Assembly: GCF_026344005.1 (NCBI RefSeq)
Contig: NZ_JAPKNH010000001.1
Location: 186,001-250,000, forward strand
Source: Kaistia terrae
GTDB lineage: Bacteria > Pseudomonadota > Alphaproteobacteria > Rhizobiales > Kaistiaceae
DNA: 64,000 bases
Direction: 5' to 3'
Below the pieces are notes generated by a model, which did not search any database, had not been told where the DNA came from, and was given only the letters and a program-made list of their open reading frames with translations. Positions 4,968 through 43,062 of the stretch are shown here, piece by piece. The position numbers were made by a program, and so were the translations under genes. The stretch's first letter is position 1; each line of letters begins with the position of its first letter.

Positions 4968-5567
4968 CTATTGTTTCTCGTCGCCGGGATCGGCGGGGGG
5001 AGGGGCATCGGCCGATGGCAGCTCGGCCGAGCAACTGGCGGCGCGCAACATCGTTTCCGCCCGGCCGACCAGCGTCGGGTCGGCGACAAAACTGCGGATC
5101 AGCGCAAAGCCGCGCGTGATCGGCACCTCGATGACGATCGACTGGTCGAGCGCCGCGATCGGGTTCTCGCGCAGTTGCGCCATCTGCACCGGCGTCGCGA
5201 TCACCAGGTCGATGTCGGCGCGTTCGGCCGAGCGGTCGTTCAGGCTGTAGACATTGCTGCCGCGCCGGTTGAACACCGCGATTGACCAGAAATCCTCCGG
5301 CATCGCCGCCTTGATGCGGATCGGCCCGTCCTCGAGCGAAAAGCGGCAGGCGGCATAGGCCATTTGCGGATCGAGATAGGGCAGCGGTTCCGTGCCCGGC
5401 TCCGACATCGGCAGAAGATGAAACGCGCCGTCCTGGCCGAAGCGACCAAGCGAGGTCCAGGCGTCGCGATTGGCGAAATCGGGCATCAGCAGGATCACGG
5501 CGATGTGGATGATACCGCCGAGCAGCAGGCCGCCTATGACATAGAGCAGGGTGCGGATCACGGACAT
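4968..5567 (-). CDS. DUF1254 domain protein, membrane-anchored
   Basis: A 199-residue protein with one N-terminal membrane segment (about residues 5-28, LLYVIGGLLLGGIIHIAVILL region) followed by a DUF1254-type domain (AACRFSLEDGPIRIKAAMPE, SIAVFNRRGSNVYSLNDR parts). It is second in a two-gene operon, overlapping the end of the DUF1214 gene by 10 bases. DUF1254 and DUF1214 often occur fused in one larger protein; here they are two small anchored proteins. Biochemical role unknown. Confidence 0.8.
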   Translation of the reverse strand: MSVIRTLLYVIGGLLLGGIIHIAVILLMPDFANRDAWTSLGRFGQDGAFHLLPMSEPGTEPLPYLDPQMAYAACRFSLEDGPIRIKAAMPEDFWSIAVFNRRGSNVYSLNDRSAERADIDLVIATPVQMAQLRENPIAALDQSIVIEVPITRGFALIRSFVADPTLVGRAETMLRAASCSAELPSADAPPPADPGDEKQ

Positions 5568-6133
5568 CCGACCCTCTCGATCGCCGGCACGACGATGGCG
5601 CCGATGGTCGCGCCGCCGGCCAGCGGCGTGTCGTAGAGGCGCAGGATCAGCCGGAACCGGTCTTCCGTCGTCACCGGCAACCAGTTGCCCGGCTGTGCCG
5701 AGCGCGACACGGCGATGGTGAAGCTGCCGTTTTCGTGGCGCAAAACCTCGCGCGAATGAAACACCGTGCGCTGGGCCGGGTTCTCCATCAGGTGCCCGTC
5801 GCCGTCATAGACGGTCAGCGTCCAGAGCCGCGCCGGCGGCGTCTGGCCGGTGATGCGATAGGTGCAGCCGCCATTCAACCGCGAGCCCTGGTCGTCGGCA
5901 TCGGCCGAGAAGGCGAGGCCTTCGCCGGCGCCGAGCGGCACTTCGCCGGTGCGCGCCAGCATCGCCGCCGTATAGGGGTCGGCGTCCGCGCTGCCGGTAT
6001 CGGGCCATGCCGTCCAGGCGCCGCGCGTCACCGCCCCGAACATCCGTTCGCGGTCGAGCACGAGCGCGGCCGAGCCGAATCCGACGATCACGGCGATGGC
6101 AATGGCGATGGCGAGGTTGATGAGAAGTCGCAA
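5558..6133 (-). CDS. DUF1214 domain protein, membrane-anchored
   Basis: The open frame extends far upstream with no ribosome binding site and with a compositionally odd, Arg/Gln-rich translation, so the start is placed at TTG 6133, 7 bases after GAGG; the protein then begins MRLLINLAIAIAIAV with a membrane segment. The rest (about 60-190) is a DUF1214 domain, with GGCTYRITGQTPPARLWTLT and NPAQRTVFHSRE regions. First gene of the DUF1214-DUF1254 operon, transcribed divergently from the DMT exporter gene. Function unknown. Confidence 0.75.
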   Translation of the reverse strand: MRLLINLAIAIAIAVIVGFGSAALVLDRERMFGAVTRGAWTAWPDTGSADADPYTAAMLARTGEVPLGAGEGLAFSADADDQGSRLNGGCTYRITGQTPPARLWTLTVYDGDGHLMENPAQRTVFHSREVLRHENGSFTIAVSRSAQPGNWLPVTTEDRFRLILRLYDTPLAGGATIGAIVVPAIERVGCP

Positions 6134-6310
6134 GAACAGGCCTCGAAGCGGAGTGTGGCGAAGATAGCGTGGCCGAACGCCGGGCGATAGCACGGTTGAT
6201 GCAAACCATCGGCGGATGCACGCCGCTTTGCATGACCGCCGCAAGAAACGGGTTGCCACCGAAGGGCAAGGCGGGCAGAGCAGGCGGGTGTTCCGCAACC
6301 TCCCGAGGCG

Positions 6311-7252
6311 ATGATGACGACGGCGATCCGCCAGACGATGACGCGCGGCGACTGGGCCCTGCTGGCGACCCTCTCGGCGCTCTGGGGCGGTTCGTTCTTC
6401 TTCAATTCGGTCGCCGGCAAGGCGTTGCCGCCCTTCACAATCGTGTCGCTGCGTGTCGGCATCGCGGCGTTGATTCTGATCGCGCTGATCCGCCTGACGG
6501 GCAAGACGCTGCCGGAAGGCTGGCGGGTCTGGCGCGTGCTGTTCGGCATGGGCCTGATCAACAACGTCATCCCGTTTTCGCTGATCGTCTGGGGCCAGAC
6601 CCAGGTGCCGAGCGGGCTCGCCTCCGTGCTCAATGCCACCACGCCGTTCTGGACGGCGCTGGTCGTCAACTTCCTCACTGCGGACGAGAAGCTGACGGCG
6701 GCAAAGCTCACCGGCATCGCCATCGGCGTCGTCGGCGTCGCGGTGCTGATCGGCCCCGCCGTCTTCCTCAATCTCGGTTCGCATGGGCTTGGCGAATTCG
6801 CGATTCTGCTGGCAACCCTCAGCTACGGCTTTTCCGGCGCACTTGCGCGGCATCTGCCGCGCCTCGGCGTCGCGCCGATGACGGCCGCGACCGGGCAGAT
6901 GATCGCCGCGACGACGATGATGGTGCCGCTGGCGCTGATCTTCGATCGCCCCTGGCAGCTGGACATGCCGGGCTGGCATGTCTGGGCGGCCATCCTCGGC
7001 CTCGCCGCGCTCTCGACCGCGCTCGGCTACCTGATCTTCTTCCGCCTGCTCGCCCGCGCCGGCGCGACCAACACCTCGCTGGTGACGCTGCTGGTCCCCG
7101 TCTCGGCGATCCTGCTCGGCACGCTGGTGCTGAACGAGACGCTGGAGCCAAAGCATTTTGCCGGCATGGCGCTGATCGGCCTGGGGCTGCTGGCGTTCGA
7201 CGGCAGGGCGTGGCGCACGCTGCGGGCGCGCCGCGCCGTCGAAGCCACGTGA
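6311..7252 (+). CDS. DMT superfamily transporter (EamA family)
   Basis: A 313-residue inner-membrane protein with about ten hydrophobic helices in two EamA repeats (about 20-145 and 160-295). The first repeat opens with LSALWGGSFFFNSVAGKALPP, typical of the family, and the second closes with PVSAILLGTLVLNETLEPKHFAG. Likely exports a metabolite or amino acid; substrate not predictable. The ATG at 6311 follows a CGAGG sequence. No operon partner. Confidence 0.9.
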   Translation: MMTTAIRQTMTRGDWALLATLSALWGGSFFFNSVAGKALPPFTIVSLRVGIAALILIALIRLTGKTLPEGWRVWRVLFGMGLINNVIPFSLIVWGQTQVPSGLASVLNATTPFWTALVVNFLTADEKLTAAKLTGIAIGVVGVAVLIGPAVFLNLGSHGLGEFAILLATLSYGFSGALARHLPRLGVAPMTAATGQMIAATTMMVPLALIFDRPWQLDMPGWHVWAAILGLAALSTALGYLIFFRLLARAGATNTSLVTLLVPVSAILLGTLVLNETLEPKHFAGMALIGLGLLAFDGRAWRTLRARRAVEAT

Positions 7253-7280
7253 CATCAAGAGTGGCGGCACGCTCCGTCGG

Positions 7281-7320
7281 CTCCCTCGCCCACGCAGTGG
7301 GAGAGGGCGGGGGTGAGGGT
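7281..7320. repeat. Palindromic intergenic repeat, GGGAGAGGGC type
   Basis: An inverted repeat with arms around CCCTCGCCC and GGGAGAGGGC followed by GGTGAGGGT. The same type recurs at 40632-40670, 41050-41090 and twice within 46190-46345. It follows the stop of the exporter gene and may act as a REP-like mRNA end signal. Confidence 0.7.
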
Positions 7321-7371
7321 CTTGCTTTCCTCTAGAAGGCCTGCGTGCAACCCGGCGCCGCCGCGTCGCCT

Positions 7372-8262
7372 TCAGCCCAGCACGGCGCGCACGAAAGCGC
7401 CCATCTCGGCCAGCGAGCGACGCCCATCGGCAAGCTGCGGATAGAACAGGTGCCAGGCGTGGATCATCTGCGGCCAGACCTGCAGGCTGGTTCGCACATC
7501 GGCGGAAGCCGCGACGCCGGCCAGCCGGATCGCATCCTCGAGCAGCGTCTCGTCGGACCCGACCTGGATCAGCAGCGGCGGCAAGCCCTTGAGATCCGCA
7601 TGGATCGGCGAAACCAGCGGATTGCGGGGATCGGCGCCATGCAGATAGGCCGTCGCCAGTTCCTGCAGATACGGACGCTGGATCAACGGATCGACCGCCG
7701 CCTTGCTCTCCATCGTGGCAGCAGACATTTCGAGATCCACCCAGGGCGAGGCGCACCACGCGCAGGCGGGCAGGGGCGTGCCCGCATCGCGCAGCGAAAC
7801 CAGCGTCGAGATCGCCAGCCCGCCGCCGGCGCTCTCGCCTGCCAGCACGATGTTTTCCGGCAGAAACCCTTGCGCCAGCAGGAAGCGATAGCCTGTCAGC
7901 GCATCCTCGAGCGCCGCCGGAAAGGGGTTTTCCGGCGCCAGCCGATAATCTAGCGCCAGCGTGCGCGTCCCGGCTTCCCGCCCGGCCTGCGCCAGCATGT
8001 GCCGGTGGCTCCGGATCGACCCGGCGGCATAGCCGCCGCCATGCAGGAACAGGATTGCGCGCTTCGGATCGGCATCGGGCGTCAACGTCCATTCCGCCTT
8101 AACGCCATCCGCATCCACCGGCTTGACGACGACATCCGCCGGCATGTCGTAGCGCGCCGTCAGTCCATCCAGCCGCTTCCGCCGCCCCGCCAGATCCGCC
8201 GGCCGCTCCCCCGCCGCCAGCAGGGCGCGAACGGCTGCGATTTCTGTGGCTGTGTCGGTCAT
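7372..8262 (-). CDS. Alpha/beta hydrolase, hormone-sensitive lipase family
   Basis: A 296-residue esterase/lipase. The oxyanion motif HGGG is at 74-77, the nucleophile elbow GESAGG puts the catalytic Ser at about 144, the acid is Asp about 237 in GSDETL and the catalytic His about 268 in MIHAWH. No signal peptide, so it is cytoplasmic. The ATG at 8262 follows GGGGGAGG, which sets the start; an upstream ATG at 8370 has no such site. Substrate unknown, probably short-chain acyl esters. Confidence 0.9.
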   Translation of the reverse strand: MTDTATEIAAVRALLAAGERPADLAGRRKRLDGLTARYDMPADVVVKPVDADGVKAEWTLTPDADPKRAILFLHGGGYAAGSIRSHRHMLAQAGREAGTRTLALDYRLAPENPFPAALEDALTGYRFLLAQGFLPENIVLAGESAGGGLAISTLVSLRDAGTPLPACAWCASPWVDLEMSAATMESKAAVDPLIQRPYLQELATAYLHGADPRNPLVSPIHADLKGLPPLLIQVGSDETLLEDAIRLAGVAASADVRTSLQVWPQMIHAWHLFYPQLADGRRSLAEMGAFVRAVLG

Positions 8263-8864
8263 TTTTGCCTCCCCCGGTTTGAGTTCGATCCCTCGACCGC
8301 CCGGACGCGGATGTCCCAGCGGAGCCGATCGTTCGCCCAAGATTTGCGCGCGCCGTTCCGGTAGCGTCAATACGGGATGCGGAAACGGCAGTTGGAAGGA
8401 TTGGGGCGCGTCGAAGGACGGATTCAGTTTGACAGCGGGGCGCTGCCTCCTTGGAGCCGAACCATGTTCGCCGGCATGGCGCTGATCGGCGGCAGGGTAA
8501 GCAGACGGTGACGGCGTGACGACGTCGCGGGTGAAAGTTGTGAGGGCTGTGTTGCAAAGCGTTGACAGGGGTCCCGCATGGCCGCTTTAGGACTAGTAAC
8601 TGTCATTTGGCTGTCGACCCCATTCCCGCCATTCACGATCAAACTCGGGTAACGTGAAAGCCGTCGTCTCCCCACCCCTGATCGTCATCTGAAACGGGCG
8701 GATTCATAAGCTCGCCGAAGTCGCGAAAGATTCCCAATGTGTCACCGCAAGCGGATGCTCACTCCAGGTTCCCATTTTACCGGTTTTCAGCGATCAGCGT
8801 TACGGTTAGATATGCGGTCGCAAGCACGCGGCCGCCGATATTTTTGCAGAAAGAGATTTAGACC
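8263..8864. other. Gene-free stretch, left flank of the defence island
   Basis: No convincing gene in 602 bases. The hydrolase promoter must lie at the left end. Bases 8471-8490 repeat exactly 20 bases of the 3' end of the DMT exporter gene (7161-7180), a possible relic. From about 8590 on the sequence becomes A+T-richer, matching the island that follows; 8800-8860 probably carries the island promoter, though no clear -35/-10 pair was identified. Confidence 0.5.
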
Positions 8865-9674
8865 GTGGCGATTTCCTCTTTCCAGCTGAAATCAGCGCAG
8901 TTCCTTATGAATGGGGGTGTTCCACAGGTCATTGATTTCCTCGGACCCAATGCACACGCCGACAGGTCGCATATAACACTGATTACAGGAGCCAATGGCA
9001 GTAGTAAGAGCCGGATATTGGCAAGCGTTGTGGATCGCTTCTGCGAACTCCACGATGAGAGTTCCGAAAAAAAGGTATCAAAACGGTACAGCACGTCTGG
9101 AACTCACGGACTTATTTGTGAGAGAATCGACAGTCGAGGAGACCGGGCCAGAGATACTCACAATAACTTACATCGCACCGTTCTGCCGACAAAGATCTTA
9201 GTGCTGTCCAATCTTGTTATGGACCGATTTCGCTTTGTATCAAACGACCCCAACGATGATCAGTTTTACCAGTATCTCGGTGTAAGGCAGGCAACAAACC
9301 TGATGACAACGGGCTCAATGCAACGCTCCGTTGCTGAGGCTGTTATGCGGCTCTATGCAGATGAAGCCAAACGCGATCTGTTCCAAGGTTGGGCCGAGTT
9401 GGTGTTTGGTAGCACCCGTGAAATTGCCCTCACTTTTGATCGCGTCTCAATTTCGCAGATCGAGAAGTTTCTGTCAGAGGCAGATCCTGTGAACGCCTTG
9501 GTCGAGCGGATGGCCCGCGTGCGGGGTAGCGCTAGGCCCAGCGATGAACGGCTGCTTGAGGGCGCCAGCAAGTCAGCTCCGCAACTCATCCATTTTTTCA
9601 GTATCTCCTCAGCCGAACTGAAAATGTTGAAAGCCTCGGGGGTAGAGGACTTAGCCGCCCTGGCCTTAGGTTAA
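8865..9674 (+). CDS. ptuA: Septu-like PtuA ATPase, N-terminal part (split gene)
   Basis: A 269-residue reading frame holding the N-terminal half of an ABC/AAA-type ATPase related to RecF/OLD-like proteins. The P-loop GANGSSKS lies at about 42-49; the family form is GxNGxGKS, so a Ser replaces the last Gly. No signature motif or Walker B is present; they lie in the next frame (9686-10345). The two frames overlap between 9560 and 9674, and a net shift of -1 or +2 there would join them into one protein of about 490 residues, the usual PtuA size. Starts at GTG 8865 with only a weak AGAGA site. Read with the downstream HNH gene as a Septu antiphage system (inference from architecture). Confidence 0.7.
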   Translation: MAISSFQLKSAQFLMNGGVPQVIDFLGPNAHADRSHITLITGANGSSKSRILASVVDRFCELHDESSEKKVSKRYSTSGTHGLICERIDSRGDRARDTHNNLHRTVLPTKILVLSNLVMDRFRFVSNDPNDDQFYQYLGVRQATNLMTTGSMQRSVAEAVMRLYADEAKRDLFQGWAELVFGSTREIALTFDRVSISQIEKFLSEADPVNALVERMARVRGSARPSDERLLEGASKSAPQLIHFFSISSAELKMLKASGVEDLAALALG

Positions 9675-9685
9675 GGTTAGATGCG

Positions 9686-10345
9686 TTGAGCCACACCGCT
9701 CTGCTTGAGTTGGCAGAACTACAGCCGGCGGTTGCGACAGCCATTAGAGGTCGGTTTTTTTCTTGGCCGACTGTAGCGATTGAAGGAGACGCCTGGCAGG
9801 GCTGGACGGAATTCGGACAGTTAAGCTCAGGGGAGCAGAATATTCTATCTACCGGGGCAAAACTCATCGCACACGCCGAGCCTGGCTGTTTGATCGCGGT
9901 CGACGAACCTGAAGTAAGTCTCAATACCGCGTGGCAACAACACTACACCGACCTCGTCTCTCGATCTCTGTCAGAGGCTCCGGGAAGCCACGTATTAATC
10001 GCCACCCATTCGCCGCATCTGATATCCAGCCTGCCATTCGGCGAGTCCAGTATTGTACAGATAGAGCGAAACAAAGAGCGGCTAAAAGCTTCAACCATCG
10101 ATGCCGAATTTGAAGGTTGGGGGTCTGAATCAGTGCTGTATCAAGTTTTGGATATTCCATCTGCTTCAAGCTTTGGATTCCAAAGGGAGTTGGCATCTAT
10201 ACTTTTGCACATTCAAGAAAATGGAGCAGACCGAGACCGTCTCGATGAATTCTTGGAAAAGGCGAATCGTCTGAATTTCGAAGGCGCAGACGCACTGGCA
10301 CAGGTTATCGCGTCAATAAGAGATTACCGAGACGATTTGGTATGA
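9686..10345 (+). CDS. ptuA: Septu-like PtuA ATPase, C-terminal part (split gene)
   Basis: A frame of at least 219 residues, open from 9560. It carries the ABC signature QLSSGEQN (about 45-52), Walker B LIAVDEPEVSLN (about 69-80) and H-loop IATHSPHL (His about 108), which complete the ATPase begun at 8865. TTG 9686 is only the first possible start in this frame. The match of order and size argues for one ancestral gene broken near 9660-9680, where the 6-mer AGGTTA occurs twice in tandem (9668-9679), or at the G5 run 9638-9642. Its stop overlaps the ATG of the HNH gene, showing tight coupling. Whether it is expressed by frameshifting, is broken, or reflects a sequence error is open. Confidence 0.7.
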   Translation: MSHTALLELAELQPAVATAIRGRFFSWPTVAIEGDAWQGWTEFGQLSSGEQNILSTGAKLIAHAEPGCLIAVDEPEVSLNTAWQQHYTDLVSRSLSEAPGSHVLIATHSPHLISSLPFGESSIVQIERNKERLKASTIDAEFEGWGSESVLYQVLDIPSASSFGFQRELASILLHIQENGADRDRLDEFLEKANRLNFEGADALAQVIASIRDYRDDLV

Positions 10346-10971
10346 AAAAGTTGAGCGTTCCGCAAATCCAATGGAGTACTGTCCGTTTCTTGCGCTGTAA
10401 GCTCTTGGATATTCCGACTGCCCAGGTTTTATGGAAGCGTAGGGATGGAAGATACAAGATTTTTAAAGATAGCATAACGACAACAATGTTGGCCGCGCAA
10501 TCAAAGCGGTGTGCATATTGCGGCACCCGTCTATTCGAGAAGAGGCCCCACAGAGATCATATCGCCCCCAAGAGCCCCCATTACCGCTGGACATTTTGGC
10601 CAGCCAACCTAGTCTTGGCCTGCTATTGTTGTAACGTTGATTGTAAGGGTGAGACCGATACAGTCGCGGCGGCAGCGTCTAGTTATCGGCGCACCACCTT
10701 TTCCATCGTACATCCGTTCTTTGACGATCCTGCTGACCACCTGAACTTTGGAGTGGCTGATAGGGCCATACTGATCAGTCCAAAGAACGGTTCGGCGAAA
10801 GGGGCCGAGACGATCAGGCTTTTCAATTTGATGGACCCTGAACGTGCCAAGGAACGAGCTAAAGATGTTCTCTTGGATGACGATATCCAGCATCTCCAAG
10901 GCGTCACTCGGGATTTGTTTATTGCCGCAACCGAAGAGTTGCGTAGCAATAGAATTGTCATGAAGACATGA
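10342..10971 (+). CDS. ptuB: Septu-like PtuB HNH endonuclease
   Basis: A 209-residue nuclease. A central HNH domain (about 55-105) has a zinc-type CxxC (Cys57, Cys60), RDHIAPKS with His about 73, the Asn of PANLVLA about 89 and a second Cys cluster ACYCCN followed by Lys. The ATG overlaps the stop of the ATPase frame. In Septu systems an ABC-type ATPase (PtuA) is paired with an HNH protein (PtuB) of about this size, and the pair restricts phage. No reverse transcriptase lies nearby, so this is not a retron-linked version. Codon and base use are A+T-richer than the flanking genes, suggesting transfer. Confidence 0.75.
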   Translation: MKKLSVPQIQWSTVRFLRCKLLDIPTAQVLWKRRDGRYKIFKDSITTTMLAAQSKRCAYCGTRLFEKRPHRDHIAPKSPHYRWTFWPANLVLACYCCNVDCKGETDTVAAAASSYRRTTFSIVHPFFDDPADHLNFGVADRAILISPKNGSAKGAETIRLFNLMDPERAKERAKDVLLDDDIQHLQGVTRDLFIAATEELRSNRIVMKT

Positions 10972-11422
10972 CGCGATAGAAATATTTCTCGCATTGTACG
11001 CAAGAACTCGGGCCAAATTTATATAGGGGTGTGGTGCTTGGAGCAGTATGAACTGCCAGCTTGGGGACGAATTATCGCAGGTTGGCGCCGGAGCGGAGGT
11101 CTGCTCGGGGCCGGTTAGAACTGTGATTGCCATAAATGGCCGTCCGCTTCGATTACTCGGAACCGTAAGCAGACTGTCTCCTATCTGCCCCAGCTTTGCC
11201 AACCGCAGCGTCCGCTTTCCCTCGAAACCGCTGGAAACCCGCTAGCCCGCTTCCCACCCCATCTCGGACATTGCCGGCAGGTGGGCGGTCGACATCTTCC
11301 TCGATCCTTTCGCGGTCACGCCGCGCCGAGCCGAGCTCTAGTGCCCCCGCGTCGTAAGGCCCGGCCGGCCGGGGCGCGCCCTCTTTGTGCGAACCGGCAT
11401 CCGCTTCGTTGAAAAAGAATGC
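10972..11422. other. Gene-free stretch, right flank of the defence island
   Basis: No gene supported in 451 bases. A+T-rich sequence ends near 11050 and the rest returns to the chromosomal base use. Contains a possible gene relic at 11285-11341 (separate entry). No attachment-site-like direct repeat was found between this flank and the left flank by eye. Confidence 0.5.
11285..11341 (+). pseudogene. Possible relic of a DUF2161 gene
   Basis: The frame reads AVDIFLDPFAVTPRRAEL then stop. The intact DUF2161 gene at 13154 has AVDVILEPFVATPRRDPK, so 10 of the first 15 residues agree. Nothing upstream in frame continues the similarity. Most simply a remnant left by rearrangement near the defence island; chance similarity is possible but the run is long. 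Confidence 0.45.
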
Positions 11423-12145
11423 CTAGCCGGATGTCGGCGCGGACCGGTTGTCCAGCGCTTGCCTGAGGTTTGCGCGCGCCGTTTCGTTGCGGCTCATCAT
11501 CAGCGCGATCGCGGCTTCCGAAGCCTTGTCCGGGTGGCCGGCATCGAAGGGCGGGGCGGGGTCGTATTCGATCGCCAGCTGGATCGCCTTGGCGACTTCC
11601 GCACCGGCAAGCTCCGCGACGATGGCGAAGGCGAAATCGATGCCCGAGGTAACGCCGCCCGAGGTGAAGACATTTCCGTCGCGCACGACGCGCGCTTTCT
11701 CATGCCGGGCGCCGACCCGCGGCAGCAGGTCGACATAGGCCCAGTGTGTCGTGGCGCGACGTCCCCGGAGCAGGCCGGCCGCGCCGAGCAGGAAGGCGCC
11801 GACGCAGACGGACGTCACATAGTCGGCGCGCTCGCCCTCGCGGCGGATGAAATCGATCGTCTCGTCATCGGCCAGCGCATCGACGACGCCCGCGCCGCCG
11901 GGCAGGCAGATAAGGTTCAGCGGCGGACAATCCTGGAAGGTGCAGCTCGGCAGGATGCCGAGCCCGCGATCGCTCATAACCGGCAGCCGCGTTTTCGCGA
12001 TGACATGGGTTTTCGCGTCCGGGAACGGGCTGGGCGCGGAAAGCGACGGCGGCGTTCCCAGCCGGCTCAAAACCTCGAACGGCCCGGTGAAGTCGAGCTG
12101 GGTCATGCCGGGGAAGATCACGAAGCCGACGTTGAAGTCCGACAT
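11423..12145 (-). CDS. inhA: DJ-1/PfpI family protein, isonitrile hydratase-like
   Basis: A 240-residue cytoplasmic enzyme-like protein. The nucleophile elbow TSVCVGAFLLGAAGLL gives Cys about 114, followed by GRRATTHWAY; Asp18 (QLDFTGP) lies where isonitrile hydratases use an acidic residue. Other shared blocks are DCPPLNLICLPGG, VVRDGNVFTSGG and AIEYDPAPPF. These agree with Pseudomonas InhA, which hydrates isonitriles to N-substituted formamides. The ATG at 12145 follows GGAGGGGG. A broader DJ-1/PfpI role cannot be excluded. Confidence 0.75.
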   Translation of the reverse strand: MSDFNVGFVIFPGMTQLDFTGPFEVLSRLGTPPSLSAPSPFPDAKTHVIAKTRLPVMSDRGLGILPSCTFQDCPPLNLICLPGGAGVVDALADDETIDFIRREGERADYVTSVCVGAFLLGAAGLLRGRRATTHWAYVDLLPRVGARHEKARVVRDGNVFTSGGVTSGIDFAFAIVAELAGAEVAKAIQLAIEYDPAPPFDAGHPDKASEAAIALMMSRNETARANLRQALDNRSAPTSG

Positions 12146-12185
12146 CCAAACCCCCTCCGGATGCGCCGCGATCCGGTCCCGCTGC

Positions 12186-12884
12186 CTAGGCCGGCAGGAC
12201 GAGCACCTTCGTGTCGACGGGCGTGCGCGCATAGAGGTCGAGCATGTCCTGCGTCAGCAGGCCGGTGCAGCCGCTGGTCACGCCGGTTCCGATCGAGCGC
12301 GCCACGCGCGTGCTGTAGATCGTGTAAAGCGTGTATTTGCCGTCCTGGTAGAGGTAGAGCGTGCGGGCGCCGAGCGGATTGTCGGGGCCTCCGGGCATGC
12401 CGGCGGCATATTTGGCCGCCTCGGGCTGGCGCGCGATCATCTCCTTGGGCGGCGTCCAGGTCGGCCATTCGGCCTTGCGGCCGACATAGGCCTCGCCGCT
12501 CCACAGGAAGCCCTCGCGGCCGACATTGGCGCCGTAGCGCGTGGCGTTGTCGTTGCCCTCGATGCGGTAGACATAGTGCTTGGCGGGATCGATGATGATC
12601 GTGCCCGGCGCTTCCTTGCTGGGATAGCGCACGGTGCGGCGGTAATATTTCGGGTCGACCTTGCTGATATCCACCGCGGCAATCGGGAATTTGGCGTCGG
12701 CCACCGGTCCGTAGGCCCGGACGGCCTCCGAATAGCTCATGCCGCCCGAAGACGCGCAACCGGCGAGGCTCAGCGCGCCGAGGCCGGCAGCGGAGCCGAT
12801 CAGAAACGAGCGGCGGTTGAGCGCTGCAGGCGCAGCCGCCTCCGGCATCGGGCCACCCTCGGCCACCATGTTGTCCATATCCAT
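12186..12884 (-). CDS. L,D-transpeptidase-like lipoprotein with altered active site
   Basis: About 232 residues. A twin-arginine type signal (RRSFLIG, about 24-30) runs into a lipobox LAGC (Cys about 43), so it is probably exported by Tat and lipidated. The rest resembles the YkuD/ErfK L,D-transpeptidase domain of rhizobial proteins (GTIIIDPAKHYVYRIEG; LYLYQDGKYTLY). At the active site the usual HGTN is here YSTR, and the usual SSGCIRM is TSGCTGL: Cys206 is kept but the catalytic His and following Arg are not. It may be inactive or act by a changed mechanism. Start taken at the MDMDNM methionine; the ribosome binding site is weak. Confidence 0.75.
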   Translation of the reverse strand: MDMDNMVAEGGPMPEAAAPAALNRRSFLIGSAAGLGALSLAGCASSGGMSYSEAVRAYGPVADAKFPIAAVDISKVDPKYYRRTVRYPSKEAPGTIIIDPAKHYVYRIEGNDNATRYGANVGREGFLWSGEAYVGRKAEWPTWTPPKEMIARQPEAAKYAAGMPGGPDNPLGARTLYLYQDGKYTLYTIYSTRVARSIGTGVTSGCTGLLTQDMLDLYARTPVDTKVLVLPA

Positions 12885-13153: not shown

Positions 13154-13798
13154 ATGGCGGAGACGGATCTCTATCTTCCACTGAAGGCCTTCATGGAAGG
13201 CGCCGGCTATTCCGTCAAAGGCGAGGTCAATGGCTGCGACCTGGTCGGCGTGAAAGACGGCGACCCGCCCGTGCTCATCGTTTGCGAGATGAAGCTGAGC
13301 TTCAATCTTGAACTGGTCATGCAGGGCGTCAACCGGGCGGCAGCCTGCGACGAAGTCTGGCTTGCAGCGCGATCCTCCAAGACCGGGAAAGGTCGGGAGC
13401 ACGATGCGCGGTTCCGCAATCTGTGCCGGCGGCTTGGTTTCGGGCTCATCGCCGTCTCGGCATCCGGCGCTGTGGACGTCATCCTCGAACCCTTCGTCGC
13501 GACGCCGCGCCGAGATCCCAAGCGACGCTCCCGGCTGCTCGCGGAGCACAAGCTCCGGGTCGGCGATCCCCAGATCGGCGGCGGGCGCGGCAAGCCGATC
13601 ATGACTGCCTACCGGCAGGACTGCATTTTGTGCGCGACGTCGTTGCTGACCGGCCCCCAAAGCCCGAAGCAGTTGAAGACGCTGGTTGCGAGAGCTCCGA
13701 CAATCCTGCGGAGCAATGTCTATGGCTGGTTTGTCCGGGAGAGCAGGGGAGTCTACGGGCTGACGGAGCTTGGCCGGGCCGCCGTCCAGCCGGCGTAG
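13154..13798 (+). CDS. DUF2161 family protein, PD-(D/E)XK-like nuclease fold
   Basis: A 214-residue protein starting MAETDLYLPLKAFMEG, a typical DUF2161 beginning. The block GCDLVGVK...VLIVCEMKLSF holds the Asp and Glu-x-Lys expected for a PD-(D/E)XK fold, and a C-terminal region (about 150-210) looks like a winged helix (SPKQLKTLVARAPTILRSNVYGWF). ATG 13154 is chosen over GTG 13127 because an AAGCGAAG site precedes it. Cellular role unknown; DNA binding or cleavage is inferred from the fold. Confidence 0.8.
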   Translation: MAETDLYLPLKAFMEGAGYSVKGEVNGCDLVGVKDGDPPVLIVCEMKLSFNLELVMQGVNRAAACDEVWLAARSSKTGKGREHDARFRNLCRRLGFGLIAVSASGAVDVILEPFVATPRRDPKRRSRLLAEHKLRVGDPQIGGGRGKPIMTAYRQDCILCATSLLTGPQSPKQLKTLVARAPTILRSNVYGWFVRESRGVYGLTELGRAAVQPA

Positions 13799-18400: not shown

Positions 18401-19117
18401 TCAGAACTTGTAGTTCAGGCCGAACTTGACCGTCTGCAGCGAGGAGAGGTCGGCGTTCAGCCGGCTCCCTGGTCCAAACACCTCGACGTTGTATTCTTTC
18501 GAGCCGAGATCGGCATAGAGATACTCGACCTTGGCGGTGACGTTGTCGGTGACGGCATATTCGACGCCGGCGCCGACCGTCCAGCCGGTGTGCATCTGGC
18601 TGTCGCCAACGCCAAAGTTCGGAAGGCCCGGATAGCCACTGACGTCCAGGCCGGATTTGGCATTGGCCCAGGCGAAGCCGCCCGTGACATAGGGCAGGAA
18701 GCGGTCGATGGCATAGCCGGCGCGGGCGCGAACCGTGCCGAGCGCGGTGATCTTCGTATAGGCGGTAAACAGGCCGCCATCGGGACCCGGGGCCGCGAAG
18801 TCATCCTTGAAGTCGGCAAAAGCGGCGTCCGCTTCGAGGCCGAGAACGATCTGGTTCGAGAGCTGGTAATTGTAGCCGATCTGGCCACCGCCGAAGAAGC
18901 CATCCGGCTTGTTGCCCGCGCCTGCGGCATCGGTCAAATCATTGTCGAGGTCGGCCCAGCCATAGCCGGCATGGACGCCGGCGTAGAAGCCGGTCCAGCT
19001 GAAGACCGGAGCGGCGATGACGACGTCCTCGGTGACCACTGTCAGGTCCGCCGCATGGGCAGTCGATCCGAGCCCGAATGCGGCGACGAAAGCCAGGCCG
19101 AGTGCGTGCTTGATCAT
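18401..19117 (-). CDS. Outer-membrane beta-barrel protein, Omp25/Omp31 type (copy 1)
   Basis: A 238-residue protein with a signal peptide ending AHA-AD (about 22), then SWTGFYAGVHAGYGW, alternating strands, GTVRARAGYAIDRFLPYVTGGFAWA and the terminal FGLNYKF ending in Phe, the BAM recognition signal. This is the eight-stranded Omp25/Omp31 porin-like family of Hyphomicrobiales. The ATG at 19117 follows GGGGGA. Closely similar to the next two genes, showing tandem duplication. Confidence 0.9.
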   Translation of the reverse strand: MIKHALGLAFVAAFGLGSTAHAADLTVVTEDVVIAAPVFSWTGFYAGVHAGYGWADLDNDLTDAAGAGNKPDGFFGGGQIGYNYQLSNQIVLGLEADAAFADFKDDFAAPGPDGGLFTAYTKITALGTVRARAGYAIDRFLPYVTGGFAWANAKSGLDVSGYPGLPNFGVGDSQMHTGWTVGAGVEYAVTDNVTAKVEYLYADLGSKEYNVEVFGPGSRLNADLSSLQTVKFGLNYKF

Positions 19118-19250
19118 GATGTTTCCCCCAAGAGTTGAGAGAACGTAGCTGGAATGACGTGCGCCGTCCGTGCCCGACGAGCAACACCCTATATTATTGG
19201 TCCGAAATCAAAATGACCGCCAATACGACGGTTGCCACAGTGTTTCGCCA

Positions 19251-19283
19251 TAAAAATGGCGGCGCTGCCGTGGCAACGCCGCC
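19251..19283 (-). terminator. Intrinsic terminator after second barrel gene
   Basis: In the minus direction GGCGGCG, a 12-base loop and CGCCGCC are followed directly by ATTTTTA. It lies about 20 bases past the stop of the gene at 19302. The almost identical hairpin at 20177-20202 shows that the terminator was copied with the gene. Confidence 0.75.
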
Positions 19284-19301
19284 GTCTCGAAGGAGCTCTG
19301 A

Positions 19302-20036
19302 TCAGAACTTGTAGTTCAGGCCAAACTTGACCGTCTGGAGCGAGGAGAGGTCGGCGTTGTACTGGCCGCTTCCGCCCAAAACATTCGCGGTGAAATCATT
19401 CGAGCCGAGGTCGGCATAGAGATATTCGACTTTGGCGGTGATGTTGTTGGTGACGGCATATTCGAGGCCGGCGCCGATCGTCCAGCCGGTGAAGACCTGG
19501 CTGTCGCTGGAGCTGACGTTTGAAGCGTTCGGGATGTTGCTGGCGATGTAGACCTCAGACTCTGCGTTGGCCCAGGCAAAACCACCCGTCACATAGGGGA
19601 GAAAGCGATCGACGGCATAGCCGGCGCGCGCGCGAACCGTGCCAAGCGCCGTGATTTTGCTGCGGGTGCCAACTTCGAAGTACTGGTCTCTGTCGCCTAT
19701 GCGCAGGGCGCCGTTGTCCTTCAGGTCGGCGAAAGCGGCGTCTGCCTCGATACCGAGCACGATGTTGTTGGAGAACTGGTAGTTGTAGCCGAGCTGGCCG
19801 CCGCCGAAGAAGCCATCCGGCTTGTTGCCATTGCCCTCGCCGTACGTATCGGTCATTTCGCTATCGAGTGTGGCCTTGCCGTAGCCCGCGTGGACACCGG
19901 CGTAGAAGCCGGTCCAGTTGAAGGACGGGGCCGCGATGACGACGTCCTCGGGGACGACTGTCAGGTCCGCCGCATGGGCCGTCGAACCGAGGCTGAAGGC
20001 GGTCGCGAAAGCGAGGCCGAATGCTTGCTTGATCAT
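19302..20036 (-). CDS. Outer-membrane beta-barrel protein, Omp25/Omp31 type (copy 2)
   Basis: A 244-residue paralogue of copy 1: same signal peptide pattern, NWTGFYAGVHAGYGK after it, NKPDGFFGGGQLGYNYQFSN in the body, and a terminal FGLNYKF. ATG 20036 is chosen because TTGGGGA precedes it by the right distance; the in-frame ATG at 20048 would sit inside that site. Extracellular loops differ most from copy 1 (for example the DRDQYFEVGTRSK stretch), as expected for surface variation. Confidence 0.9.
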   Translation of the reverse strand: MIKQAFGLAFATAFSLGSTAHAADLTVVPEDVVIAAPSFNWTGFYAGVHAGYGKATLDSEMTDTYGEGNGNKPDGFFGGGQLGYNYQFSNNIVLGIEADAAFADLKDNGALRIGDRDQYFEVGTRSKITALGTVRARAGYAVDRFLPYVTGGFAWANAESEVYIASNIPNASNVSSSDSQVFTGWTIGAGLEYAVTNNITAKVEYLYADLGSNDFTANVLGGSGQYNADLSSLQTVKFGLNYKF

Positions 20037-20169
20037 AATGTTCCCCAAGAGTTGGAGGAACGTCTAGCCGGAATGAAGCGCACCGTCCGTGGCCGACAAG
20101 CAACATATTAAATTATTGAACTGAAATTGAAATTTCTGACAATGCGAAGGGAGACAAAGTGTTTCGCCA

Positions 20170-20202
20170 TAGAAACGGCGGCGCTGCCATGGCAACGCCG
20201 CC
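20170..20202 (-). terminator. Intrinsic terminator after third barrel gene
   Basis: The same hairpin as at 19258-19283 (GGCGGCG and CGCCGCC arms), about 20 bases past the stop at 20221. The T tract is poorer here (GTTTCT in the minus direction). Confidence 0.6.
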
Positions 20203-20220
20203 GTCTCGAAGGAGCTCTGA

Positions 20221-20922
20221 TCAGAACTTGTAGTTCAGGCCGAACTTGACCGTCTGCAGGGTGAGGTCGGCGGAGACCGGCGTTCCGAGGTCGAAATCCG
20301 TCGAGCCGAGATCGGCATAGAGATATTCGACCTTCGCCGTGATGTTGTTGGTGACGGCGTATTCGAGGCCGGCGCCGACGGTCCAGCCGGTGGAGGTCTG
20401 CTTGTCGGACGCGCTGTTGTCGATCGCGACTACCCCGTCCGCCGTCACGACCCGACGAAAGTCGAATTCGGTCTTCGCCCAGGCAAGGCCGCCTGTGACA
20501 TAGGGCAGGAAGCGGTCGAAGGCATAGCCGGCGCGGGCGCGCACCGTGCCGAAGGCGTCGATCTTGGTGTTGTAGTCGAGGGCAAAGGATGTGTCCGCCG
20601 GGTCGCCGAGCAGGACGGAGATATCGTCCTTCTGGTCGCCGAAGGAAGCGTCCGCCTCGATGCCCAGGACGATGTTGTTCGAGAATTGATAATTGTAGCC
20701 GGCCTGGGCGCCACCGAAGAAGCCGTCCGGCTTCTGGCCGCCATAGGCGTCGGTCGGCTCAGACTTGAAGTCGCCCCAAGCATAGCCGCCATGGACGCCG
20801 ATATAGACGCCGGTCCAGGTGAATATCGGCTCCGGCGCGGGCAAGGGCGCTGGCGCCAGGTCTGCGGCGTGGGCCGTGCCGGCCAGCCCGAGCGCGATGG
20901 CGAGCGCGATTGCGGTCTTCAT
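20221..20922 (-). CDS. Outer-membrane beta-barrel protein, Omp25/Omp31 type (copy 3)
   Basis: A 233-residue paralogue. MKTAIALAIALGLAGTAHA is the signal peptide; ATG 20922 follows GGAGG by 7 bases, so the longer frame from 20943 is not used. The mature part begins with a Pro-rich spacer (APAPLPAPEP), then FTWTGVYIGVHGGYAW and the shared barrel blocks up to FGLNYKF. More distant from copies 1 and 2 than they are from each other, so it is probably the older copy. Confidence 0.9.
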   Translation of the reverse strand: MKTAIALAIALGLAGTAHAADLAPAPLPAPEPIFTWTGVYIGVHGGYAWGDFKSEPTDAYGGQKPDGFFGGAQAGYNYQFSNNIVLGIEADASFGDQKDDISVLLGDPADTSFALDYNTKIDAFGTVRARAGYAFDRFLPYVTGGLAWAKTEFDFRRVVTADGVVAIDNSASDKQTSTGWTVGAGLEYAVTNNITAKVEYLYADLGSTDFDLGTPVSADLTLQTVKFGLNYKF

Positions 20923-21223
20923 CCAATAGCCTCCGTGATCCATTCTCGTCTAAAGGAACGATAGTGGATCTAGCCATGACGAAAGGGTGAACGTCGAGCG
21001 ATAAACGAACCCTTCCCCGTTATAGTTGTGGTCCTGTTGCAATATTACATAGTTAGTTAAACTATACGTAAGTATATATTTGGAATATAGTTTTGATCTG
21101 ATTTTTTAATGGCGACAAATTGTTCTGAAAATCGGTCGAAGTTCAGAGGGCGTCCGCCGTCCGGCTATGACCATGCCGGTGGCTTTGCGCGGTCGGGCCG
21201 GAAAATGGCCACCCCGACTGATG
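20923..21223. other. A+T-rich intergenic region upstream of barrel copy 3
   Basis: No gene seen. Bases 21000-21110 are markedly A+T-rich for this genome and should contain the promoter of the barrel gene at 20221. An inverted repeat ATAGTT-N5-AACTAT lies at 21049-21065 and could be a regulator site; no clear -35/-10 pair was assigned. Confidence 0.5.
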
Positions 21224-38855: not shown

Positions 38856-39218
38856 CGGTGAGTCCTCTTGGGCCGGATGGTCTTGAGGCGGGGATACTGG
38901 CGCCGGGATGCTTTGGCGAGCGCTCTGGAAGAGGCAGGTTCCCAGGCAGCGCCTTCAACTCCGACTCGACGTCGAGTTTACGGCCGGAACGTAAGGCGAA
39001 GTGACGCCCACGTCGATAGGTTGTCTGTTCCAGCATGAACGCAAAGCGGTTGTAGGGCCAGTCCCTTACCCAACCCTCTTCGGAAAGCTCGCAATTGTAA
39101 CTTTTGGCCAAGGCGCGCGGGCGCTCGAGGCCGGTGAAATCGGCTCCTTCTTCGAAAAGGGGGGGCCTTGGTGGGGAGGCCTCGGCATCTCCCGACAAGC
39201 TGTTCGATCGGAGACGCC
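38856..39218. other. Unassigned stretch between diguanylate cyclase and portal
   Basis: About 360 bases with no confident gene. One plus-strand frame (39001-39222, GTG start, 73 residues) overlaps the portal ATG in ATGA fashion, and a minus-strand frame covers the same bases; neither has a recognisable domain. The portal ribosome binding site (CGGAG) lies at the right end. Contains the promoter of the cyclase gene. Confidence 0.4.
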
Positions 39219-40430
39219 ATGAAACCGAACCTTCTTACCCGCCTGTTCGGCGGAAGCGTTGCCGCGCCCGAGGCAAAGGCGTCGCGCGCCGGACCGCTGA
39301 TCGCGCTGCAAGGGCAGGGCCGTGCGGTCTGGACCTCGCGCGACCTCGCCAGCCTCGCCCGCGAAGGCTTTATGAAAAACGCCATCGTCTATCGCGCCAT
39401 CTCGATGATCGCGGAAGCCGCGGCTTCCGTACCGTGGCTCGCCTATGAGGGCGAGGCGGAGAGACCGGATCATCCGTTGCTGGCGCTGCTGTCGCGTCCG
39501 AACGGTCGCCAGTCGGGAAAAGCCTGGCTGGAGGCGCTTTATGGCAATTTGCTCGTTTCCGGCAACGCTTATGCCGAGTTGGTCCAGCTTGGCGGCTCGC
39601 CTGCCGAACTGCACGCGCTGCGGCCGGACCGGATGAAGGTTGTGCCGGGGGGCGATGGTTGGCCGGAGGCCTATGAATATTCCGTCGCCGGGCGGACGGT
39701 GCGCTTTCCCGTCGAGGACGGGCTGTCGCCGATCCTGCATCTGCGACTGTTTCATCCGCTCGATGATCACTATGGCTTTGCCCCGCTGGAAGCGGCGGCG
39801 ATCGCGCTCGATCTGCACAACGCCGCCGGCGCCTGGAACAAGGCGTTGCTCGACAATGCGGCGCGGCCTTCCGGCGCGTTGGTCTATCGCGGCGAGGGCG
39901 GCGCCAATCTGAGCCAGGAACAATTCGAACGGCTGAAGCGCGAGCTGGAAGCGAATTATACCGGCGCGGTCAATGCCGGTCGCCCGCTATTGCTCGAAGG
40001 CGGGCTCGACTGGACGTCGATGGCGCTGACGCCGCACGACATGGATTTCATCGAGGCGAAGAATGGCGCGGCGCGCGAGATCGCGCTCGCCTTTGGTGTG
40101 CCGCCCATGCTGCTCGGCATTCCCGGCGACAACACGTTTGCGAACTATGCCGAAGCCAACCGCGTGTTCTGGCGGCAGACGATCTTGCCGCTGCTTGGCC
40201 GCACCGCCGATGCGTTGACCAACTGGCTTGGACCGCATTTTCCCGGCGCGATCCGGCTGGGTTTCGACGTCGATGCCATCGAGGCGCTGTCGGTCGAACG
40301 GTCGGCTCTCTGGAGCCGGGTCGGTGCGGCGGACTTTTTGTCGAAGGACGAAAAACGCCAGGCAGTCGGCTATGGCGCGGCGAGGCCGGGGGATGGCGAA
40401 GGAGAAGGAGACGAGGGGTGGACGACTTGA
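39219..40430 (+). CDS. GTA portal protein (g3), HK97 family
   Basis: A 403-residue phage portal: FMKNAIVYRAISMIAEAAAS, NLLVSGNAYAELV, the GLSPILHLRLF and FEAAAIALDLHNAAGAWNKAL-like block (HPLDDHYGFAPLEAAA, then ALDLHNAAGAW), and FGVPPMLLGIPGDNTFANYAEA. The protein forms the dodecameric ring through which DNA enters the head. ATG 39219 follows GGAG. Separated from the terminase gene by 2.4 kb of passenger genes, which is unusual. Confidence 0.93.
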   Translation: MKPNLLTRLFGGSVAAPEAKASRAGPLIALQGQGRAVWTSRDLASLAREGFMKNAIVYRAISMIAEAAASVPWLAYEGEAERPDHPLLALLSRPNGRQSGKAWLEALYGNLLVSGNAYAELVQLGGSPAELHALRPDRMKVVPGGDGWPEAYEYSVAGRTVRFPVEDGLSPILHLRLFHPLDDHYGFAPLEAAAIALDLHNAAGAWNKALLDNAARPSGALVYRGEGGANLSQEQFERLKRELEANYTGAVNAGRPLLLEGGLDWTSMALTPHDMDFIEAKNGAAREIALAFGVPPMLLGIPGDNTFANYAEANRVFWRQTILPLLGRTADALTNWLGPHFPGAIRLGFDVDAIEALSVERSALWSRVGAADFLSKDEKRQAVGYGAARPGDGEGEGDEGWTT

Positions 40431-40606
40431 CCCGCGCCTTTGCCAGCCGCGGCGACCTCGCGCATCTGGCGCTGTTCCTCTGGGCTTCTGGCGCCAGCGG
40501 TTTGCTGGTCTGGGCGCTGCGCGAGCTGGCGAGTTCGAACCGCCGCTTCAACGACTTCGTTGCCGAGATCGCACGGCTGAATCGGTTTTTTAATGATCGG
40601 CGGTAA
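40418..40606 (+). CDS. Small GTA-associated membrane protein (g3.5 position)
   Basis: A 62-residue protein with one membrane segment (LALFLWASGASGLLVWALREL) and a charged helix. GTG 40418 overlaps the portal gene by 13 bases. RcGTA-like clusters often carry a small gene at this point between portal and protease; the role is not known. Confidence 0.6.
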   Translation: MDDLTRAFASRGDLAHLALFLWASGASGLLVWALRELASSNRRFNDFVAEIARLNRFFNDRR

Positions 40607-40631
40607 GGGACTGCGTTGACTCGGTTTTCTT

Positions 40632-40670
40632 CTCCCTCTCCCGCGAAGTGGGAGAGGGCTGGGCGAGGGT
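40632..40670. repeat. Palindromic repeat, GGGAGAGGGC type
   Basis: CTCCCTCTCCC...GGGAGAGGGC followed by GGCGAGGGT; same family as 7281-7320. Confidence 0.7.
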
Positions 40671-40737
40671 TCTTTGGAGGTGGAACGACGGCGGGACGCG
40701 CATCGGATTAAGCTCAACGCGTCCCTACGCCCACCGC

Positions 40738-40868
40738 CGTCATCCTCGCGCAGGCGAGCATCCATGCAGCCGAAGCCTCGGGAGGTTCAGGCGGTCCAAT
40801 GCCGCCGGCCTTCGCACTGCGATCCGTGAACCCGGCTGCATGGATCCTCGCTTTCGCGAGGATGACGG
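40738..40868. repeat. Facing pair of palindromic repeats within the GTA cluster
   Basis: Left hairpin CGTCATCCTCGCG...CGAGCATCCATGC, right hairpin ATGGATCCTCGC...GCGAGGATGACG, with CAGCCGAAGCC and CCCGGCTGC next to them. About 130 bases, same build as the elements at 48746-48847 and 53564-53682. Confidence 0.8.
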
Positions 40869-40913
40869 CGAGTTAGGGGCAGGCGCCGAGCGTCAATTTG
40901 ATGGAGTGAACGA

Positions 40914-41018
40914 ATGGCCGCCATGCTGAACCGCATCCTGCAACGCCTGGCACCGGACCACAGAAAGGTTTTCCGCGATTTTGCTGGCGCGTTGGAAAAG
41001 CTGCTGGCGCGCCCCTGA
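40914..41018 (+). CDS. Possible 34-residue protein
   Basis: ATG 40914 lies 7 bases after GGAG; the peptide MAAMLNRILQRLAPDHRKVF... is an amphipathic, basic helix ending in LEKLLARP. Position between the g3.5-like gene and the protease is where small accessory GTA genes may occur. No homologue recognised; coding status is uncertain. Confidence 0.35.
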   Translation: MAAMLNRILQRLAPDHRKVFRDFAGALEKLLARP

Positions 41019-41049
41019 CCGACAACGCCCCGATTTTAAGCCGGCCGGA

Positions 41050-41090
41050 CTCCCTCGCCCGCAAGGCGGGAGAGGGCTGGGGTGAGGGGC
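41050..41090. repeat. Palindromic repeat, GGGAGAGGGC type
   Basis: CTCCCTCGCCCGCAAGGCGG followed by GAGAGGGCTGGGGTGAGGG; between the possible 34-residue gene and the protease gene. Confidence 0.7.
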
Positions 41091-41183
41091 CTTCCTTCGC
41101 CTGAATCAGCCTCTGAACCGAAGCCGCCAAACCTTTGATCCGACTCCCCCTTCCACGCGGAACATTTCCGCGAAGGAGACCGC

Positions 41184-42976: not shown

Positions 42977-43062
42977 GGGCCGACAACACCCTTGCTGCAG
43001 GCGGGCGAGTGGCCGCGCAGCTTTTCTCCCGGCGAGCGTCCACCATTTTTCGTTTCATCTCG

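What the first reader, a model, noticed from the sequence alone, without database searches (positions are those of the whole stretch)
8865..10971. Septu-like (PtuA/PtuB) antiphage module on an A+T-richer island
An ABC/AAA-type ATPase (P-loop, LSSGE signature, Walker B LIAVDEP, H-loop) overlaps an HNH endonuclease gene in an ATGA junction. This ATPase-HNH architecture and the sizes fit Septu. The stretch is visibly richer in A+T than its surroundings and sits between possible gene relics, consistent with acquisition. No reverse transcriptase or other defence gene is next to it.
Basis: partly seen in the sequence, partly recalled or inferred. Interest (0 to 1): 0.75.

Follow-up and report, generated by a model that had tools for sequence, protein, structure and literature searches.

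The report
Broken Septu phage-defence gene pair
A bacterium carries an imported Septu phage-defence gene pair at a chromosomal spot where some sister species keep other defence-type genes, but one of the two genes is interrupted by a shift of the reading frame, so it is probably switched off here.

Summary
The finding is a Septu locus. Both pieces of the ATPase match PtuA models (9.2e-20, 5.3e-46) and the HNH gene matches PtuB (1.1e-28). No RVT_1 match exists in the genome, so it is no retron. But ptuA is not one gene: the frame changes, most likely at a T-run (9593-9598), while 11 of 12 relatives have one uninterrupted PtuA of 480-556 aa and the twelfth is cut by its contig end. As sequenced it is probably off, unless the shift is a sequencing error or is recoded.

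Acquisition is supported: no PtuB match in 13 other genomes of the genus or 396 sampled from the order; 50.7% G+C in a 65% window; scraps of EamA and DUF2161 genes at its edges, the genes that bound other cargo in four sister genomes, defence-type in three.

One oddity is not decay: the P-loop glycine is Ser, Asn or Tyr in 7 of 47 PtuA sequences, all in one 13-row clade, with at least three changes.

Verdict: ordinary Septu member, broken, in a variable site, with a curious P-loop.

The parts
8865..9674 (+). ptuA, N-terminal half (269 aa ORF, GTG start); P-loop GANGSSKS at 8988-9011
   Evidence: PADLOC PtuA PDLC00265 9.2e-20; 41% identical to Ideonella PtuA over 249 aligned columns
9593..9598 (+). 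run of six T at which the ptuA reading frame most likely changes
   Evidence: N-half homology to L093 ends at residue 245 (nt 9599), C-frame homology begins at nt 9593; HMM score best for a switch at 9587-9599 (456.2-456.8 bits), but 9638-9656 (453.5-454.1) and 9662-9671 (451.6-452.7) are only a few bits lower
9686..10345 (+). ptuA, C-terminal half (219 aa ORF; frame open from 9560): LSSGE, Walker B, H-loop
   Evidence: PADLOC PtuA PDLC00265 5.3e-46; frame from 9560 is 53% identical to Ideonella PtuA over 249 aligned columns
10342..10971 (+). ptuB, HNH endonuclease, 209 aa, intact; overlaps ptuA by ATGA
   Evidence: PADLOC PtuB PDLC00312 1.1e-28; C57, C60, H73, N89, C94, C97 and N98 invariant in 6 PtuB sequences; no internal stop
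8449..8492 (+). relic of the 3' end of an EamA gene at the left edge of the cargo
   Evidence: score 55 to the window's own EamA, 45 to that of G004, 51 to that of G001, no dinucleotide shuffle of 200 as high; not significant to that of G011 (25; 27 of 200 as high)
11259..11330 (+). relic of an internal piece of a DUF2161 gene at the right edge of the cargo
   Evidence: scores 47 (own), 54 (G005), 48 (G004), 38 (G001), no dinucleotide shuffle of 200 as high; 34 to G011 (1 of 200 as high)
6311..7252 (+). EamA transporter gene, left neighbour of the site
   Evidence: PF00892 1.7e-40; long DNA matches in six sister genomes G001, G004, G005, G007, G009, G011
7372..8265 (-). alpha/beta hydrolase, left neighbour shared with G004
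   Evidence: PF07859 1.1e-50; 86.7% identical DNA over 5031-8300
13154..13798 (+). intact DUF2161 gene, right-hand boundary of the site in sister genomes
   Evidence: PF09929 2.8e-32; found in 10 of 14 genus genomes, own included

Best explanation
This is a stand-alone Septu (ptuA-ptuB) locus that came in by horizontal transfer. It sits at a variable cargo site between an EamA transporter gene and a DUF2161 gene, with scraps of both at its edges. An intact relative would work as known Septu systems do: PtuA, an ABC/Rad50-type ATPase, oligomerises, binds ATP and holds or positions the HNH nuclease PtuB; phage infection unleashes PtuB on a nucleic acid, and the infected cell stops making phage. 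In this genome ptuA has suffered a frame change, most likely at a T-run between its two ATPase lobes, with no other lesion seen, so the break looks recent and the system is most likely off. PtuB alone is expected to be harmless and idle. Shown here: family identity, gene order, acquisition, site, frame change in the sequence as given. Inferred: mechanism, target, how the cargo arrived, and the off state.
For: HMM matches of all three ORFs. The model of the intact Ideonella relative (pLDDT 82.5) has retron I-A/Septu PtuA structures as top matches (the 13 rows with Z 16.0 or more are all PtuA, rmsd 4.0-9.1). PtuA is one ORF in 11 of 12 relatives, the twelfth being cut by its contig end. The 4-bp ptuA/ptuB overlap occurs in 5 of 5 relatives tested. 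Absence from relatives. Composition. Relics. Three of the four sister genomes with the linked site carry A+T-rich defence-type cargo. Walker A/B mutants of PtuA and H/N mutants of PtuB in E. coli Septu lose immunity (PMC13096335, passages); PtuA or PtuB alone of retron-Eco7 did not arrest growth (PMC11555353, passages).
Against: A homopolymer is also where a sequencing or assembly error would fall, and no reads were available. PtuB shows no damage, and neither ptuA half has an internal stop up to the switch, as in a working gene. The switch point is favoured by only a few bits. Foldseek TM-scores to PtuA structures are low (0.30-0.42) with large rmsd, and by sequence profile AriA ranks above PtuA in the PDB. 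No other strain of the species was available.
Confidence: 0.6

Rival explanations
1. The frame change is a sequencing or assembly error in a T homopolymer; the cell has an intact, working Septu locus.
For: The break most likely lies at a homopolymer and is the only lesion seen in about 2.1 kb; PtuB and both ptuA halves keep the motifs of their relatives.
Against: Two longer runs in the same gene (A7 at 9067, T7 at 9755) are read in frame, and the window holds 21 runs of six or more. The flanking genes I identified (EamA, hydrolase, DUF2161, YkuD, DJ-1/PfpI) are open and match their Pfam families. The sequencing method is unknown to me.
Confidence: 0.22
2. Programmed recoding: the T-run, read as T TTT TTC in the upstream frame, is a -1 slip site that yields full-length PtuA at low level, which would tune a potentially toxic system.
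For: The T-run is in the right phase for an X XXY YYZ heptamer (motif recalled) and the direction of the change (-1) fits.
Against: No unusually stable RNA downstream (93 nt, z -0.47; 59 of 200 shuffles fold as well). All 11 complete relatives have PtuA in one frame and the nearest, L093, lacks the run. I saw no upstream Shine-Dalgarno-like stretch by eye.
Confidence: 0.06
3. Split or phase-variable PtuA: the two ATPase lobes are made as separate proteins (re-initiation at TTG 9686, 11 nt after the upstream stop), or the T-run length flips the gene on and off.
For: The split lies between the P-loop lobe and the signature/Walker B lobe, as in Rad50/SMC heads (recalled); Rad50 and SMC heads align to the relative's model.
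Against: The C-half ORF from TTG 9686 starts about 29 codons after the T-run, so the residues between would be lost. Six T is short for phase variation (recalled). None of the 11 complete relatives is split.
Confidence: 0.07
4. Not Septu but a retron I-A effector pair, a PARIS-type ATPase, or a housekeeping RecF/SMC protein.
For: Cross-matches: HNH_I-A 1.3e-11, AriA 5.5e-10; TIGR02646 45.6 bits against a cut-off of 52.15; AriA ranks above PtuA in the PDB sequence searches.
Against: No RVT_1 match in the genome. The best PtuA model scores far above the best AriA model (155.7 against 37.2 bits for the C half), and the partner is an HNH protein with PtuB models on top. SMC_N and AAA_23 are below cut-off.
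Confidence: 0.03

Closest known systems
Septu, PtuA-PtuB (E. coli; structures 8ee4, 8eea, 8sux)
   Same: ABC-type ATPase followed by an HNH nuclease, no reverse transcriptase. The relative's model aligns to 8ee4/8eea/8sux with Z 16.0-16.3, rmsd 4.1-4.4. Catalytic H and N of PtuB kept.
   Different: Only 17-19% identity in structural alignment. ptuA is frame-broken here. The P-loop glycine is replaced by Ser, and SLHP after Walker B reads SLNT.
PtuA/PtuB of retron I-A (Ec78/Eco7, Ec83)
   Same: Same ATPase and HNH families; top structural matches of the relative.
   Different: No RVT_1 match in the genome; NCBIfam PtuA and PtuB (retron Ec78) models far below cut-off (26.9 of 500 for the C half, 41.3 of 150 bits).
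Septu clade of Ideonella, Pseudomonas, Casimicrobiaceae (L093-L097)
   Same: Nearest relatives: PtuB 44-52% identical, PtuA 36-43% (N half) and 47-53% (C half); same 4-bp overlap; one 6-row clade with the window at 100/100.
   Different: All five have ptuA in one frame; the two Pseudomonas keep the canonical P-loop glycine.
PARIS AriA
   Same: Related ABC ATPase.
   Different: Partner is an HNH/PtuB protein, not an AriB-type nuclease; PADLOC AriA scores far below PtuA.

Membership tests
Septu | ATPase homologous to PtuA | tested here: met
   PDLC00265 9.2e-20 and 5.3e-46 for the two halves; clade tree; fold of the intact relative
Septu | HNH nuclease homologous to PtuB with catalytic H and N | tested here: met
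   PDLC00312 1.1e-28; H73 and N89 invariant in 6 sequences; solved PtuB 22bv 2.2e-5
Septu | ptuA and ptuB adjacent, same strand | tested here: met
   ATGA overlap at 10342-10345; 4-bp overlap (ATGA or TTGA) in 5 of 5 relatives tested
Septu, as a working system | one uninterrupted ptuA frame | tested here: not met
   frame change between 9560 and 9674, most likely at 9593-9598. A member by descent; function is therefore not claimed
Septu, as a working system | canonical Walker A in PtuA | tested here: not met
   GANGSSKS; but 6 PtuA relatives with one full-length frame also lack this glycine, so it does not mark decay
Septu | protects against phage | not testable with these tools
   needs a plaque assay
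Retron I-A | reverse transcriptase and msr-msd beside ptuAB | tested here: not met
   0 of 1 genome with an RVT_1 match, while 3 of 14 control genomes ring; no Rfam match reaching a gathering score in 7300-12200. The msr-msd itself was not otherwise sought
PARIS | AriA ATPase with AriB nuclease partner | tested here: not met
   the partner is HNH/PtuB

The most novel reading that the evidence does not exclude
One Septu clade has rewired its nucleotide switch. In PtuA of the window, Ideonella, two metagenome-assembled proteobacteria and three alphaproteobacteria the P-loop glycine next to the catalytic lysine is Ser, Asn or Tyr (at least three changes on the tree), while Lys and Ser stay. Such a PtuA could sense ATP without the usual hydrolysis cycle. 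In this genome the two ATPase lobes are additionally separated at a T-run, which might gate expression by recoding or re-initiation instead of destroying it.
Probability: 0.12. Interest if true: 0.6.

Novelty: new member of a known kind. Interest (0 to 1): 0.3.

Why it matters
As a Septu locus it is ordinary. Two by-products are useful. The EamA-DUF2161 interval holds different defence-type cargo in some sister genomes, so it is a place to look for new defence genes (for example the pair in G001 whose second gene matched nothing in Pfam, PADLOC or NCBIfam). The PtuA clade with a substituted P-loop glycine offers natural variants for asking what ATP binding and hydrolysis do in Septu, where the point mutants I saw reported only show that the motifs are needed (PMC13096335, passages).

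Tried and rejected
First idea rejected: that the P-loop G-to-S and the SLHP-to-SLNT changes are decay. With 9 distant PtuA sequences they looked like lesions; the nearer relatives share them in full-length genes.

Second idea rejected: that the frame change lies near 9660-9675, just before the upstream stop, as distant homologs seemed to suggest. Nearer relatives favour the T-run: among 38 switch points scored, 9587-9599 is best, by about 4-5 bits over 9662-9671 and 2-3 bits over 9638-9656. The margin is small; the local alignment with L093 is the clearer evidence, since the other relatives' N-half local alignments stop short of the junction.

Programmed frameshifting: no downstream RNA structure. 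Known RNA elements: two matches far below gathering score. Phage records: no PtuB match. Plasmids: PtuA in 42 records, all under 60% identity; two with the Ideonella query at 1e-12. The first genome-contig scan with the C half found no relative. The AlphaFold model of PtuB was poor (pLDDT 45.2) and was not used. Literature listings for Septu with frameshift and pseudogene (two papers, not opened) and PtuA with degenerate and P-loop (none) gave nothing that I used.

Rows dropped before the 47-sequence P-loop count: L103 (cut by its contig end), L078 (265-aa fragment), L072, L089, L090 and L091 (no PtuA ORF found), L036 (taken as the same record as L101: equal contig length and proteins). L066 and L074 are weak matches without the Walker B pattern and were kept. 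For L093 the script printed an earlier chance match; its P-loop is taken. Only 7 of the 26 viral rows went into the tree, and the P-loop columns were not taken out of it.

Full report
What is there. ORF 8865-9674 carries a P-loop (GANGSSKS, 8988-9011). ORF 9686-10345, in another frame, carries LSSGE (9821-9835), LIAVDEP (9890-9910) and ATHSP (10001-10015). ORF 10342-10971 is an HNH protein that overlaps it by ATGA. PADLOC gives PtuA as the best model for both ATPase pieces, matching successive parts of the same profile (positions 21-193 and 299-476 of 479; 9.2e-20 and 5.3e-46), and PtuB for the third (1.1e-28). Pfam gives AAA_21 above its cut-off for the C half; AAA_23, SMC_N, AAA_15 and HNH are below theirs. 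NCBIfam's retron Ec78 PtuA and PtuB models are far below cut-off.

Relatives. A scan of genome contigs with a two-row PtuB alignment found 12 relatives: Ideonella (48% identity), two Pseudomonas (45 and 44%), a Casimicrobiaceae MAG and a gammaproteobacterial MAG (52% over residues 30-187 each), and seven at 35-38%. In 11 of the 12, PtuA is one ORF of 480-556 aa (the listing was cut). The twelfth, L103, shows a C-terminal ORF whose frame is open to the contig start. The window's N half is 41% and its C frame 53% identical to Ideonella PtuA. The predicted structure of Ideonella PtuA (pLDDT 82.5, 17 rows) has retron I-A and E. coli Septu PtuA chains as its best matches by Foldseek E-value (TM-scores are low, 0.30-0.42, and rmsd 12-17 or so for those rows) and by VIA-align (the 13 rows with Z 16.0-17.2 are all PtuA, 265-334 residues, rmsd 4.0-9.1). 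Rad50 and SMC heads follow at Z up to 14.5, PARIS AriA up to 14.3. In PDB sequence searches AriA ranks above PtuA, so the ATPase sequence alone does not cleanly separate these cousins there; the PADLOC scores and the HNH partner do.

The frame change. The C frame is open from 9560 and the N frame ends at 9674, so the switch lies in between. Homology of the N frame to Ideonella ends at nt 9599 and that of the C frame begins at nt 9593. Among 38 possible switch points, a profile of 12 relatives' PtuA sequences (11 full-length) scores 9587-9599 best (456.2-456.8 bits); 9638-9656 give 453.5-454.1 and 9662-9671 451.6-452.7. The favoured interval holds TTTTTT at 9593-9598. There is no stop in the N frame up to 9596, in the C frame from 9593, or inside ptuB. 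A homopolymer is where real slips and sequencing errors both happen, and I cannot tell them apart without reads. Recoding is possible in principle, but there is no downstream structure (z -0.47), and the nearest relative, L093, lacks the run.

The P-loop. In 40 of 47 PtuA sequences the residue before the P-loop lysine is glycine; in 7 it is not: window S, Ideonella S, Casimicrobiaceae and gammaproteobacterial MAGs Y, Yoonia N, Sphingomonadales EhC05 S, Roseinatronobacter N. In the 28-row tree all seven lie in one 13-row clade (support 100/98; the other six rows have glycine) and at least three changes are needed; 1 of 500 label shuffles is as low (LG+G4, several long branches outside this clade, P-loop columns left in). 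The window, Ideonella, the two Pseudomonas and the two MAGs (a 6-row clade, 100/100) also share SLN in place of SLH after Walker B. So these changes belong to the clade and are not damage in the window. In E. coli Septu, mutation of Walker A K43 or Walker B D316 of PtuA, or of PtuB H75 or N91, abolished immunity (PMC13096335, passages). What replacement of the glycine does is untested.

The site. PtuB was found in 1 of 14 genomes of the genus (own; E<=0.001) and 1 of 397 sampled from the order at E<=1e-15; its model in 1 of 385 sampled from the class at E<=1e-20. The PtuA C half was in 1 of 28 of the family at E<=1e-20, and the PtuA model in 9 of 398 sampled from the phylum at E<=1e-25, own included. 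The cargo has 50.7% G+C in a 65.0% window. In 4 of the 13 sister genomes (G001, G004, G005, G011) the EamA gene and DUF2161 lie on one contig within about 8 kb. Between them G011 has a PifA-like KAP NTPase (6.2e-90), and G004 has a GHKL ATPase (no PADLOC match; PF13589 2.5e-7) followed by a PD-Lambda-3_A-like protein (4.7e-12). G001 has a DGQHR protein (DpdB 1.2e-18) followed by a gene without any match, and nearer to its DUF2161 a gene pair that by eye resembles the DUF1254 pair of G005. G005 has a DUF1254/DUF1214 pair and a Crp-type regulator and no A+T-rich cargo. Cargo G+C is 0.55 (G011), 0.50 (G004), 0.467 (G001) and 0.62 (the G005 pair). The window's cargo is bounded by an EamA fragment and a DUF2161 fragment: of nine comparisons with own and sister copies, seven exceed all 200 dinucleotide shuffles, and the two with G011 do not (EamA 27 of 200 as high, DUF2161 1 of 200). 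G001 also has a DUF2161 fragment beside its cargo. In the window DJ-1/PfpI and YkuD genes now lie between the cargo and the intact DUF2161. I infer that the Septu cassette came with pieces of the neighbours of the same site in a related strain; how it was exchanged is not shown.

Mechanism. From the literature: PtuAB of E. coli B88 Septu cleaves tRNA-Tyr and impairs infected cells in a way the authors call typical of abortive infection, and that of retron-Eco7 degrades tRNA-Tyr (PMC13096335 and PMC11555353, abstract starts and passages). PtuAB of another E. coli Septu was reported to act on nicked DNA (cited in PMC11555353). Release of the effector when the complex comes apart on infection is reported for retron I-A (cited in PMC12887533, passages); for stand-alone Septu it is inference. 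That ATP binds PtuA and inhibits PtuAB, and the 6:2 assembly, I recall from Li et al. 2024, which is not held here. For this locus the target cannot be predicted. With ptuA broken, PtuB should lack its scaffold; single effectors of Eco7 did not arrest growth (PMC11555353, passages).

Known or new. A Septu locus in a variable site is a known kind; defence hotspots are described for E. coli and P. aeruginosa (PMC10121019 and PMC10250203, search listing only). I did not see the P-loop substitution in print in the held library: searches (four papers listed, two of them opened at passages; none listed), a narrow search.

Noticed in passing
L034:2266-4467 (G011), L032:3380-5908 (G004), L056:6860-8723 (G001): Different A+T-rich defence-type genes at the same EamA-DUF2161 address in sister genomes: a PifA-like KAP NTPase; a GHKL ATPase with a PD-Lambda-3_A-like protein; a DGQHR (DpdB-like) protein with a 267-aa partner that matched nothing in Pfam, PADLOC or NCBIfam.
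   Followed up: partly
L056:6249-6454: A second, partial DUF2161 copy beside the cargo of G001, like the DUF2161 relic at window 11259-11330.
   Followed up: partly
window 39168-56460 (+): A run of phage-like structural genes: portal, head maturation protease, major head protein, head-tail adaptor, tape measure, tail proteins (1,307 aa, phrog_4271), endolysin, in DNA of the window's usual G+C. It looks like a gene transfer agent cluster (recalled, not tested).
   Followed up: partly
window 18401-20943 (-): Three tandem outer-membrane-like paralogs sharing the stretch WTG[FV]Y[AI]GVH[AG]GY; the family was not tested.
   Followed up: no
L096:269-2445, L097:101-2068, L100:4952-6865: Septu relatives sit beside other defence-type genes: a type I specificity subunit and Abi_C, AAA_13, an OLD-type nuclease.
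   Followed up: no
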